A stretch of DNA of 64,000 bases from Ogataea parapolymorpha DL-1 (lineage: Eukaryota > Ascomycota > Pichiomycetes > Pichiales > Pichiaceae): contig NC_027864.1 in the NCBI RefSeq assembly GCF_000187245.1, positions 682,001 to 746,000 on the forward strand, in the 5' to 3' direction. The translations under genes and the position numbers were made by a program. Positions 24,140 through 50,853 of the stretch are shown here, piece after piece; the first letter of the stretch is position 1, and each line of letters begins with the position of its first letter. Under the pieces are notes generated by a model. The model saw only the letters and a program-made list of their open reading frames with translations, was not told the origin of the DNA and ran no database searches.

Positions 24140-24759
24140 TCAGAGGTCGATTTCGCCCACCATCTCGTCTACGCTGCTGAGGTCGGCGTCGCTCGAGTCC
24201 GACTCGTCTTCCTCCTGGTCCGCGCCGCCGTTGCGGATTGTGGCTGGGTCCGCGTAATTTTTGACATACATTTTAACCTTCTCCACATACAAATTCTTAT
24301 CTCTCATGTAGAGCGAGCTTGCGTCCCCGTTGAGCGGGTCTGCGGCATTCGGATAGTTGAGTAGCTGCGGCAGAAACGTCTCGAAGATGTTGAAGATGTC
24401 AAACATGGGCGACCACGTCTGGTTGATCACGTCCAGACACACCGAGCCACTGGACTCGTCTATGTTGGGGTGGAAGATCTTGTTCTGGAACCCGATCGAC
24501 GGCGACTTGTACGGGTATTGGTCAGGCAGCTCCACGTGGATCCGCCACAGCCCACCCTCGTACGGCGAGTCCTTGGGGCCTTCGAAATTCACATAGAACT
24601 CTTGCATGTTGTCGTCCACCAGACTCACCTCGTAGTCGCTCATCAGTCTGCCGGTTAGTACGCCGTGCTTGGCACACTTACAGTTTCATCACATCGCTCT
24701 CAATGCGCCGTTTAGGAGAACTGGCCGTTAGTACGCTGGAAGTACCGGACTTACCTCAT
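24140..24759 (-). CDS. UBC8: Ubiquitin-conjugating enzyme E2 Ubc8, three exons with two 34-nt introns
   Basis: Ubc8 is the E2 that works with the GID/CTLH ligase in catabolite degradation of gluconeogenic enzymes. The coding sequence is complement of 24755-24759, 24720-24682 and 24647-24140, giving 183 aa. Exon 1 is ATG plus two bases. Joining yields MSSPKRRIESDVMKLLMSDY, which matches the start of yeast Ubc8 almost residue for residue; without splicing only a start at 24643 would be possible, losing the first helix. The catalytic Cys85 lies in GSVCLDVINQTW, the HPN motif is at 74-76, and the tail is acidic (EEDESDSSDADLSS) as in the family. S. cerevisiae UBC8 also has an intron near the 5' end. 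Confidence 0.92.
24648..24681 (-). other. UBC8 intron 2, 34 nt
   Basis: On the minus strand it starts GTAAGT, contains TACTAAC and ends CGGCAG. Removing it restores the codons for Lys-Leu-Leu-Met-Ser-Asp, identical to the S. cerevisiae protein at this point. Confidence 0.9.
24721..24754 (-). other. UBC8 intron 1, 34 nt
   Basis: On the minus strand it starts GTAAGT, carries the branch-point motif TACTAAC with the branch A at intron position 27, and ends GGCCAG. Removing it joins ATG-AG to T-TCT-CCT in frame. Confidence 0.88.
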
Positions 24760-24813
24760 AGTTGCTAGATAAGAAAAGGGGCAAACTTTTTTTACAGCAC
24801 AAAAATCATTATT

Positions 24814-25251
24814 TTATTTCACTCTATAGTACACGCTGCTTTCAAAAGAGCCCTGTTCCTCAGTGTCGTCCATTCCGGCGTTCAAATCCTCATTATCCTT
24901 CACCTCGTAGATCACTTTGTTGTATTTATCACAATATTCGTTGAAGATGGCGTTGTTTTGCTCGCGTAGCGACCCGTCGGAAGGGTTCAGAAACTCTTTC
25001 TCGAGCCGCGTGATGATCGTGTCCAACTCTTCCAGCTCGTCGTCCACGCTATCCCGCGTCTCCATCTCGCTATCGGCCTGCTCCAGCCGGCTCTTCCATT
25101 CTTCCAAGTACGCCAGGCTGTCCTGGCCCATCACGTCGCCGATGGTGACCTGTCCCACGTCCGCCGTCTGTCCACCAAACAGCTTTAGTAGGAGCTCATT
25201 TTGCACCACGTATTTAGCCGCAAGGTCGGCCTTGAGCGTGATACTGGACAT
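24814..25251 (-). CDS. Hypothetical small acidic coiled-coil protein
   Basis: I do not recognise this 145-aa protein. The N-terminal 30 residues are mixed hydrophobic (LAAKYVVQNELLLKLFGG), followed by a Glu-rich heptad region (about 45-95, LEEWKSRLEQ, LEELDTIITRLEKEFL) and an acidic end. There is no signal peptide or membrane segment. The size and coiled coil would suit a subunit of a small complex. It is divergent from MAK31 with only 34 bp between start codons and lies 54 bp upstream of UBC8 on the same strand. It is supported as a gene by the clean ATG and by filling the space between two certain genes. Confidence 0.65.
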   Translation of the reverse strand: MSSITLKADLAAKYVVQNELLLKLFGGQTADVGQVTIGDVMGQDSLAYLEEWKSRLEQADSEMETRDSVDDELEELDTIITRLEKEFLNPSDGSLREQNNAIFNEYCDKYNKVIYEVKDNEDLNAGMDDTEEQGSFESSVYYRVK

Positions 25252-25285
25252 GAAAATAAATAAATTAAAAAATAATTATTTTTTC

Positions 25286-25531
25286 ATGCTTCCTATAGAC
25301 CTCATTTCCCTGCCGTACCAAATAGTGCTCATCGACAACAGACAATTGGACGGCATTCTCATGGCAATTGACGACCAGCGCAATTTGCTGCTTTCCGACG
25401 TGTACGAGCATTCAGGCTCGCAAACAAGACATTTGGGTCTCGTGTCGGTGCCGAAGAACACCATCAAGTCTGTGCTGGTGGACAAAAACGAGTACGCAAA
25501 GGCTCAACGCTACAGGGAACGCCAGGCATGA
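25286..25531 (+). CDS. MAK31: LSM-fold auxiliary subunit of N-terminal acetyltransferase C (Mak31/Naa38)
   Basis: Mak31 is the LSM-like auxiliary subunit of NatC, which acetylates N termini beginning Met-Leu, Met-Ile, Met-Phe or Met-Trp. The 81-aa product starts at the ATG at 25286 (MLPIDLIS). Sm motif 1 is visible as LDGILMAIDDQRNLLL and Sm motif 2 as LVSVPKNTIKSVLVDK, very like LVSVPRRSVKTIMIDK of the yeast protein. The frame is open further upstream but only across the antisense of the divergent gene. Canonical Lsm proteins of RNA complexes are less likely because of this C-terminal motif and the short length (88 aa in S. cerevisiae). Confidence 0.85.
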   Translation: MLPIDLISLPYQIVLIDNRQLDGILMAIDDQRNLLLSDVYEHSGSQTRHLGLVSVPKNTIKSVLVDKNEYAKAQRYRERQA

Positions 25532-48965: not shown

Positions 48966-49039
48966 GGTGGTGATTTACAAGAAATGCGGTGGATCTTTTT
49001 AGGGGGCCAAATCTGGCCATATATCTTTACCGCTCAAAT

Positions 49040-50332
49040 TTAGCCCGACACGTTTGTCATCTCTTTTTGTTTTGCCTCCCGCAACAGTTTACGCTTTTTC
49101 TTTGCCTCAAACTCGTGCCATTCGCCCTCGATCTTACTCAAAAATTGCAGTTTCTGTTCTAGTGGCTCCTCCACAAAATATGGGTGTCTTAGAGCTTCTG
49201 ACGCGCTAATTCTGTTTTTCGGGTTTTTCGACAAGAGTTTGGTGGCCAGGTCAAAACACTGGGGGCTCAAAAGAGACCCAAACTTGGATCTAAACAGTGA
49301 TGGTTTGTGGCTGTTCGGTCTAAGCATCTCGAACCACGGCAATTTATCGCAATCTGGCCATTCGTCAGTAGTTATCGTTCCCATGATATCGTACACTTTC
49401 CATAATTGATCAACTTCGTCTGTTCCTTGAAATATGGCATGTCGTGTAAACAGCTCGATCAGCAAACATCCAATTCCCCAAATGTCCACCTCCCGTCCAT
49501 AATCTGTAGATCCCAATAAAATTTCAGGCGGACGATACCACAAGGTGATGACTCTATTAGTGTAGTTTGGCGATTCGACGTTGCTATTAATGTTCTTCAT
49601 ACGTCGTGCAAGCCCGAAGTCTGTAATCTTGAGCACTCCCTTCTCATCAAGCAAAATGTTGGAGCCCTTTATATCTCTGTGAATAACTTTTTTGGTGTGC
49701 AAATAGTTGATGCCGCGCAAAAGCTGTTTGAAAATATTCTTCTTTTCGCCATCGCTGATCACAATCTCTGCCTGCTGAAGAATACCTGCCAAATCGTGGT
49801 TCATGTACGTGAAAACCATGTAGACCGCATTTTTTTCCACCATCATCTCGCTTAGCCCAACGATGTTCGGATGGTCGAAAGACTGCAAAAGGCCAATCTC
49901 CCGGCTCGCAGTGATTGGAAAGCCCTCACGTTCAGACTCCAATCGTAGACGTTTCAGAGCCACCAGCTGCCCGGTGATCTTGTTTTTCGCCTTGTACACT
50001 TTTCCATAGGTTCCTTCTCCAACTTGGTTTATTCGCTCGAAAACAGGACCCTTGATATCCACATGACGCATGAACAGCATTTCTGGCTGCCAAGTATCTT
50101 CCTCTTCGTCCTCCATGACGTTTTTGTTGCTAACTTTGGCTCGTTTGAATGTCGGTTGAGCATTGCCTCTAGGTGCAGTGGTCGCACGGGGACCGGTTGG
50201 AAGTCGTGGCTCATCGTAGTAATATCGCTGATCCTGGCCATAGTAGTCATTGCGGTAGTAATAGCGATCGTCGTAGTACTCGTCGTTGTAATGACGCTTG
50301 TCGTAGCGCTGAAATCTAGGCGGTCCTGACAT
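49040..50332 (-). CDS. CTK1: CTDK-I catalytic subunit, cyclin-dependent kinase Ctk1
   Basis: Ctk1 phosphorylates Ser2 of the RNA polymerase II C-terminal domain, promoting elongation and 3' processing; its partners are Ctk2 and Ctk3. The 430-aa protein has a Tyr/Asp/Arg-rich N-terminal tail (DEYYDDRYYYRNDYYGQD) that is shorter than in the 528-aa yeast protein, then a complete kinase domain: GEGTYGKVYKA, PITASRE in the cyclin-binding helix, HRDIKGSNILL, DFGLARR and the activation-loop TLWYRPPE. The PITAxRE sequence is typical of Ctk1/CDK12-like kinases. It is divergent from ATG44. Confidence 0.92.
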   Translation of the reverse strand: MSGPPRFQRYDKRHYNDEYYDDRYYYRNDYYGQDQRYYYDEPRLPTGPRATTAPRGNAQPTFKRAKVSNKNVMEDEEEDTWQPEMLFMRHVDIKGPVFERINQVGEGTYGKVYKAKNKITGQLVALKRLRLESEREGFPITASREIGLLQSFDHPNIVGLSEMMVEKNAVYMVFTYMNHDLAGILQQAEIVISDGEKKNIFKQLLRGINYLHTKKVIHRDIKGSNILLDEKGVLKITDFGLARRMKNINSNVESPNYTNRVITLWYRPPEILLGSTDYGREVDIWGIGCLLIELFTRHAIFQGTDEVDQLWKVYDIMGTITTDEWPDCDKLPWFEMLRPNSHKPSLFRSKFGSLLSPQCFDLATKLLSKNPKNRISASEALRHPYFVEEPLEQKLQFLSKIEGEWHEFEAKKKRKLLREAKQKEMTNVSG

Positions 50333-50597
50333 ATTTTCAACAAGATAGAAAATTAAAAAAAAATTACACTAGTGCGAGCTGAAGCAAGCCAGACGGAAAA
50401 TTTAGGAAGCCTACGAGCAAGAGTCCTCCAATATCAGAGCGTTGTTTCTCTCATAACCTAGCCGTGAAAGAATTGTATCAAATTTTCTACGATTCTGGGG
50501 AATCCCATATCAGCTGCCCTGGTTGGCTGTGGTCGTATTTTTTCTCATTTTTTTGACTACAATTCCCCTGACTCTTATCGTTGTTTCAAATACTCAC

Positions 50598-50853
50598 ATG
50601 GCTTTCGTAAGTAAATTACTGCCAATGTCACTAACCCCAGTTCTCTAAAGCAATACACATCTCCGTGGACCTGGCCCTGCTCGCCGGCTTTCTCGCCGGC
50701 ATCAAGAAAAATACTGGGATCGAGCCCAACGTGAAGCTTCTCAACCAACCGGAGCTCGAGAAATACGCGTACAAATATTTGGAGCTTGGCGACTACTTGT
50801 ACAATCAGAGCGCCGAGTTCATGTCCAGCTCTTACTTTTTCAGAAGAAAGTGA
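50598..50853 (+). CDS. ATG44: Mitofissin Atg44 (DUF1748 family), one 34-nt intron
   Basis: Atg44 is a small mitochondrial intermembrane-space protein that mediates fission needed for mitophagy. The exons are 50598-50606 and 50641-50853, giving 73 aa, the length of the yeast protein. Exon 1 encodes only Met-Ala-Phe. The product begins MAFFSKAIHISVDLALLAG and contains FLAGIKKNTGIEP, the family signature of His-x5-Leu and (K/R)xTG. The 62-codon frame at 50665 begins at an internal GTG and lacks the first amphipathic segment, so the splice is needed to make a normal protein. Alternative DUF1748 members cannot be excluded by eye. Confidence 0.87.
50607..50640 (+). other. ATG44 intron, 34 nt
   Basis: It starts GTAAGT, contains CACTAAC with the branch A at position 28, and ends CCCAG. 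The length is identical to both UBC8 introns. Confidence 0.9.

What the first reader, a model, noticed from the sequence alone, without database searches (positions are those of the whole stretch)
24648..50640. Three spliceosomal introns of exactly 34 nt in two unrelated genes
UBC8 (24721-24754 and 24648-24681) and ATG44 (50607-50640) each need removal of 34 nt to give conserved N termini. All three have GTAAGT, a TACTAAC or CACTAAC branch point at position 27-28, and CAG six to eight nt after it, so only about 26 nt separate the 5' splice site from the branch A. S. cerevisiae introns are rarely below about 50 nt. A fixed 34-nt class would suggest a spliceosome adapted to minimal introns; 34 is not a multiple of 3, so retention always shifts the frame.
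Basis: partly seen in the sequence, partly recalled or inferred. Interest (0 to 1): 0.85.

Follow-up and report, generated by a model that had tools for sequence, protein, structure and literature searches.

The report
Minimal 34-base introns in Ogataea yeast
Three very short introns in a methylotrophic yeast are real and belong to a genome-wide class of introns that cluster around 34 bases, only somewhat longer than the splicing signals themselves, and that gene-finding software can miss.

Summary
The window is chromosome 3 of Ogataea parapolymorpha DL-1. Removing the three 34-nt stretches gives UBC8 (183 aa) and ATG44/mitofissin (73 aa), each identical over its full length to the deposited DL-1 protein. 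The strict motif occurs three times in the window and in none of 100 shuffles.

"Exactly 34 nt" does not hold. In 175 listed candidates with GTAAGT, CTAAC and YAG (one of the two lists capped), lengths run from 29 to 57 nt. The mode is 34 (25 of 175), and 112 lie at 31-37. The branch A is at nt 24 or later, mostly 26-28, and the intron ends 6-8 nt after it. Of 68 candidates with flanks, the 41 passing the stricter frame test are 30-41 nt, mode 34. GTAAGT/ACTAAC pairs at about 42-81 nt show no excess over control.

So this is a minimal-intron class with a lower edge, not a ruler. One 32-bp intron (O. polymorpha MET8) is in print; I found no description of the class. Ten of 12 listed Ogataea UBC8 entries look like false fusions with the neighbouring gene. 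How the spliceosome tolerates this spacing is open; no RNA reads were available.

The parts
24755..24759 (-). UBC8 exon 1 (ATGAG)
   Evidence: spliced protein identical to P0002
24721..24754 (-). UBC8 intron 1, 34 nt, GTAAGT ... TACTAAC GGC CAG, branch A at nt 27
24682..24720 (-). UBC8 exon 2 (39 nt)
   Evidence: spliced protein identical to P0002
24648..24681 (-). UBC8 intron 2, 34 nt, GTAAGT ... TACTAAC CGG CAG, branch A at nt 27; part of it appears translated in the deposited model P0004
24140..24647 (-). UBC8 exon 3 to the stop codon, Pfam UQ_con
50598..50606 (+). ATG44 (mitofissin) exon 1, MAF
   Evidence: spliced protein identical to P0121
50607..50640 (+). ATG44 intron, 34 nt, GTAAGT ... 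CACTAAC CC CAG, branch A at nt 28
50641..50853 (+). ATG44 exon 2 to the stop codon

Best explanation
These are ordinary U2-type spliceosomal introns reduced almost to their signals: GTAAGT, a spacer (median 18 nt up to CTAAC in the listed candidates), NCTAAC with the branch A at about nt 26-28, usually 2-4 nt, then YAG. They belong to a genome-wide minimal-intron class of O. parapolymorpha whose length is the sum of two spacings, not one ruler. The 5' splice site to branch A spacing has a sharp lower edge (first seen at nt 24). The branch A to 3' end spacing is short and tight (mostly 6-8 nt). The sum peaks at 34. Shown here: signals, lengths, lower edge, open joined frames, and identity with the deposited spliced proteins. 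Inferred: that deletion pressure shortens introns until the spliceosome's spacing limit stops it, and that the first YAG after the branch A is taken, since there is no room for a pyrimidine tract.
For: Deposited DL-1 proteins equal the spliced products exactly. The DL-1 models came from gene finding trained on assembled transcripts, so they are backed by transcripts but are predictions. Strict pattern over the whole genome: 93 matches vs 20 for the pattern read backwards; with BCTAAC and a wider gap, 152 vs 32. ACTAAC at about 42-81 nt: 18 vs 24, no excess. In 175 listed candidates the mode is 34, 112 lie at 31-37, none is under 29, and the branch A is first seen at nt 24 although 21-23 were allowed. 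Of 68 strict candidates with flanks, 47 give a joined reading frame, against 18 and 14 when the downstream exon is shifted by 1 or 2 nt. In 7 of 10 spliced products sent to Pfam, a domain runs across the junction; the ten were picked by eye as recognisable.
Against: No RNA reads were seen. 21 of 68 candidates fail the frame test; 8 of those have no joined frame at all, and 6 of the 47 that pass have a retained frame at least half as long. The controls suggest that about a fifth of the matches are chance (20 per 93, 32 per 152). Two of the 21 failures, the first UBC8 intron and C2:192857, look like true introns followed by a short exon and another intron (inference). The published mean intron length is 65 nt, so longer introns exist that my patterns cover poorly; a looser scan of 264 kb lists unverified longer candidates of 78 to 870 nt. 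In Cryptococcus, introns under 40 nt are reported as poorly spliced (PMC11913375, passages).
Confidence: 0.9

Rival explanations
1. A true fixed 34-nt class: a ruler-like spliceosome that prefers exactly 34 nt.
For: All three in the window are 34; 34 is the mode, 25 of 175 listed and 9 of 41 frame-tested.
Against: 35 (19), 33 (18), 32 (14) and 37 (14) are common too. The total is the sum of two spacings that each vary.
Confidence: 0.04
2. The stretches are regulated retained introns rather than constitutively removed ones; splicing tunes UBC8 and ATG44 output through frameshift and decay.
For: Ravin 2013 reports 94 retained-intron events in this genome (passages). 34 nt shifts the frame. Lengths divisible by 3 are mildly depleted, 37 of 149, p 0.03. 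Cryptococcus introns under 40 nt are reported as poorly spliced.
Against: I did not see the list of those 94 events, so it is unknown whether these genes are in it. The deposited proteins are the spliced forms.
Confidence: 0.12
3. Chance motif matches or annotation artefact.
For: Some listed candidates lack a joined frame, and controls are not zero.
Against: 0 of 100 shuffles of the window give a match; spliced proteins match exactly in two unrelated families.
Confidence: 0.02

Closest known systems
Ultra-short introns of Paramecium bursaria (PMC12862383, passages seen)
   Same: A tight length class (median 24 nt, best splicing at 23-26 nt) handled by a U2-dependent spliceosome
   Different: About 10 nt shorter, and more than 80% of genes there have introns; here about 34 nt, in an intron-poor yeast with a strict yeast-type branch motif
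32-bp intron of O. polymorpha MET8 (PMC8540529, passages seen)
   Same: Same genus and same size; shows that a single intron of this kind is already in print
   Different: One gene, mentioned in passing; the passages seen describe no length class
Introns of Pichia kudriavzevii (PMC6053246, passages seen); same family Pichiaceae
   Same: Few introns, yeast-like consensus
   Different: Branch to 3' splice site distance there is said to be longer than in S. cerevisiae; here the intron mostly ends 6-8 nt after the branch A
Introns of Pichia (Komagataella) pastoris, another methylotrophic yeast (PMC3547764, passages seen)
   Same: Methylotrophic budding yeast with retained introns as the main alternative splicing event
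   Different: Average canonical intron there 99 bp
Human short introns needing Smu1/RED (PMC6692369, passages seen)
   Same: Short 5' splice site to branch distance as the limiting feature
   Different: The human limit is put at about 50 nt; here the branch A sits mostly at nt 24-28

Membership tests
U2-type spliceosomal intron | GT...AG ends with a U1-type 5' splice site | tested here: met
   GTAAGT and CAG in all three
U2-type spliceosomal intron | Branch-point motif (yeast TACTAAC type) before the 3' splice site | tested here: met
   TACTAAC, TACTAAC, CACTAAC
U2-type spliceosomal intron | Removal restores a conserved reading frame | tested here: met
   UBC8 and mitofissin full length
U2-type spliceosomal intron | Removal seen in RNA | not testable with these tools
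   No reads at hand; the annotation was trained on assembled transcripts
Minimal-intron class (ciliate type) | Narrow length peak with a sharp lower edge | tested here: met
   175 listed candidates, none under 29 though 24-26 nt was searchable, 112 at 31-37; lengths below that range were not searched
Minimal-intron class (ciliate type) | The class makes up most introns of the genome | tested here: inconclusive
   Published mean 65 nt implies longer introns; GTAAGT/ACTAAC pairs of about 42-81 nt show no excess; longer ones were not counted genome-wide

The most novel reading that the evidence does not exclude
O. parapolymorpha runs a budding-yeast spliceosome at a 5' splice site to branch spacing of about 24-28 nt, roughly half the human minimum of about 50 nt. 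This would need either B-complex factors lost from S. [quoted passage not shown] It would be a genetically tractable model for minimal introns.
Probability: 0.3. Interest if true: 0.65.

Novelty: new member of a known kind. Interest (0 to 1): 0.4.

Why it matters
The minimum spacing that a spliceosome can handle is a structural question that the work seen here addresses in human extracts. A laboratory yeast with probably well over a hundred introns near that limit (245 matches against 52 in controls) would allow direct genetic tests. In practice, gene finders can miss such introns: 10 of 12 listed Ogataea UBC8 entries start with the neighbouring gene's product and lack the conserved N terminus.

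Tried and rejected
Fixed 34-nt ruler: rejected on the histogram. Two preferred branch positions (26-28 and 33-34): suggested by the ACTAAC list, where only 1 of 76 lay at 31-32, but the BCTAAC list has 13 of 99 there, so it is probably noise. Other 5' splice sites with ACTAAC: GTATGT 18 vs 10 control and GTGAGT 12 vs 8, so minor classes at most by this test. In the 264 kb held (window plus C3:1-200000), a scan gives five GTAAGT stretches of 34-37 nt, three GTATGT stretches of 32-45 nt and one GTGAGT stretch of 45 nt, while five scrambled-motif decoys give 2 to 4 matches each, scattered over 20-119 nt; a looser frame-based scan is. Second-step factors lost because the branch to 3' end distance is so short: rejected, Slu7 (42.7 bits) and Prp18 (123.7 bits) are present, and the U2 snRNA match runs over the full model. 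Literature: the searches listed no paper that I could recognise as describing this length class in Ogataea; several listings were capped at 15-20 of tens to hundreds of papers, the library holds open-licence papers only, and two likely older sources are not held. Neuveglise 2011 and Riley 2016 were seen only as citations. No paper was read whole: one section of PMC3866509, otherwise passages.
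Full report
Identity. The window is G000:C3:682001-746000, in a genome of 8.87 Mb and 7 contigs. C3 is 1,273,462 bases, the size of chromosome 3 of Hansenula polymorpha DL-1 in Ravin 2013 (PMC3866509, section seen). The deposited UBC8 and ATG44 proteins of Ogataea parapolymorpha DL-1 are listed with a contig of the same length.

Observation. The three stretches are as described. In each, GTAAGT is followed by TACTAAC (twice) or CACTAAC with the branch A at nt 27, 27 and 28, and CAG ends the intron. 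The window holds 3 matches to the strict pattern and 100 shuffles hold none. Spliced UBC8 (MSSPKRRIESDVMKLLMSDY...) equals P0002 over 183 aa. Spliced ATG44 equals P0121 (HPODL_05161) over 73 aa and matches the Pfam Mitofissin model from 1 to 69 of 69. The DL-1 gene models came from Augustus trained on assembled transcripts, so the match is strong but is not a direct view of reads.

Genome-wide test. The strict pattern (GTAAGT, gap 10-25, ACTAAC, AG after 0-12 nt) gives 93 matches against 20 for the pattern read backwards: 82 distinct 5' splice sites, 76 with a YAG end. Allowing C, G or T before CTAAC, with a gap of 10-40, gives 152 against 32. The first 100 of these were listed (C1 to C5 and the start of C6) and 99 kept. 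The controls suggest that about a fifth of the matches are chance. In the combined 175 the mode is 34 (25), followed by 35 (19) and 33 (18). 112 lie at 31-37, 149 at 41 or below, and none under 29; the longest is 57. The branch A is first seen at nt 24, though 21-23 were searchable, and is at 26-28 in 79 of 175. The intron usually ends 6-8 nt after it (138 of 175). The ACTAAC pattern with gaps of 26-56 (about 42-81 nt) gives 18 matches against 24 in the control, so no excess. The short class is therefore real, with a sharp lower edge. It is not a fixed length.

Are the candidates genes? For 68 of the 82 strict candidates I had flanks (and the window). 47 of 68 give a joined frame with an upstream ATG or open edge and at least 40 aa downstream; shifting the downstream exon by 1 or 2 nt gives 18 and 14. 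41 of 68 also have a retained frame less than half as long; their lengths run 30-41, mode 34 (9 of 41), median 34. These 41 include two of the window's three introns. The first UBC8 intron fails the automatic test because only a 39-nt exon separates it from the next intron; C2:192857 looks like a similar case, with a further candidate listed at C2:192967. Eight of the 21 failures have no joined frame at all. Of ten spliced products picked by eye and scanned with Pfam, seven have a domain running through the junction: tubulin, Tim10/DDP (64 of 64 positions), two proteasome alpha N-terminal signatures (23 of 23 each), frataxin, Zn2Cys6 cluster and ribosomal S13. In the other three (Mpv17, DEAD helicase, SecY) the domain begins at or after the junction.

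How it likely works. A 34-nt intron leaves about 15-16 nt between the 5' splice site hexamer and the 7-nt branch motif, and 2-3 nt between that motif and the YAG, so no pyrimidine tract fits. The 3' splice site is most simply the first YAG after the branch (inference). A review links short branch to 3' splice site distances in yeasts to the factor U2AF1 (PMC5499181, passages); I did not test for U2AF1. U2 snRNA is present (106.7 bits, model positions 1-192), as are the second-step factors Prp18 and Slu7. The limiting feature should be the 5' splice site to branch spacing. Keiper 2019 (PMC6692369, passages) puts the human minimum near 50 nt and shows that Smu1 and RED are needed when the spacing is short. 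PMC5364666 (passages) lists Smu1 and RED among factors without obvious orthologs in yeast. P. bursaria, with a 24-nt median, keeps SMU1 and RBM17 (PMC12862383, passages). Whether O. parapolymorpha keeps RED could not be tested: the search was sent 12 times and never answered.

What is known. Ravin 2013 gives 457 intron-containing genes, mean intron 65 nt and 94 retained-intron events. A mean of 65 with a mode of 34 implies longer introns as well; a loose scan of 264 kb lists some unverified candidates of 78 to 870 nt. P. pastoris canonical introns average 99 bp (PMC3547764, passages). A 32-bp intron in O. polymorpha MET8 is in print (PMC8540529, passages). P. kudriavzevii, in the same family, is described with a longer branch to 3' splice site distance than S. 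cerevisiae (PMC6053246, passages). Against easy splicing, Cryptococcus introns under 40 nt are reported as poorly spliced (PMC11913375, passages). I found no paper on the length class (searches; listings capped).

Annotation consequence. Of the 12 entries named Ogataea among the 120 best UBC8 hits (P0002-P0012, P0014), 2 have the conserved N terminus. The other 10 begin like the product of the upstream neighbour gene (24814-25251, minus strand) and run into UBC8; P0004 contains CAKHGVLTGRLMSDYEV, which is intron 2 read on into exon 3. That the missed short introns caused the fusions is an inference; the DNA of those other strains was not seen.

Verdict. The introns are real by every sequence test made here, and the class is real and peaks at 34, but it is a distribution with a lower edge. 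The kind of thing is known from ciliates; finding it so clearly in a budding yeast is moderately interesting and easily testable.

Noticed in passing
24760-24813 (minus strand): Only 54 nt lie between the stop codon of the upstream gene (24814-25251) and the UBC8 start codon on the same strand, leaving little room for a terminator and a promoter; the neighbour had no Pfam family over its cut-off.
   Followed up: partly
P0004-P0012, P0014: Ten Ogataea database entries fuse UBC8 to the neighbouring gene, apparently because the short introns were missed.
   Followed up: partly
39507-39839 (minus strand): LSM-domain protein (Pfam) that by sequence looks like SmD2, a core spliceosome protein (name recalled); the listed ORF starts at an ATG without an intron.
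   Followed up: no
12492-14387 (minus strand): ORF of 631 aa that by eye resembles the Prp39/Prp42 U1 snRNP proteins (recalled, not tested).
   Followed up: no
listed candidates, statistics: Candidate introns of 41 nt or less with a length divisible by 3 are mildly under-represented (37 of 149, p 0.03), as expected if retention of in-frame introns is selected against.
   Followed up: partly
G000:C2:867289 (L049): A DEAD-box helicase gene that by sequence looks like SUB2, itself a splicing factor (name recalled), carries a 38-nt candidate intron of this class.
   Followed up: no
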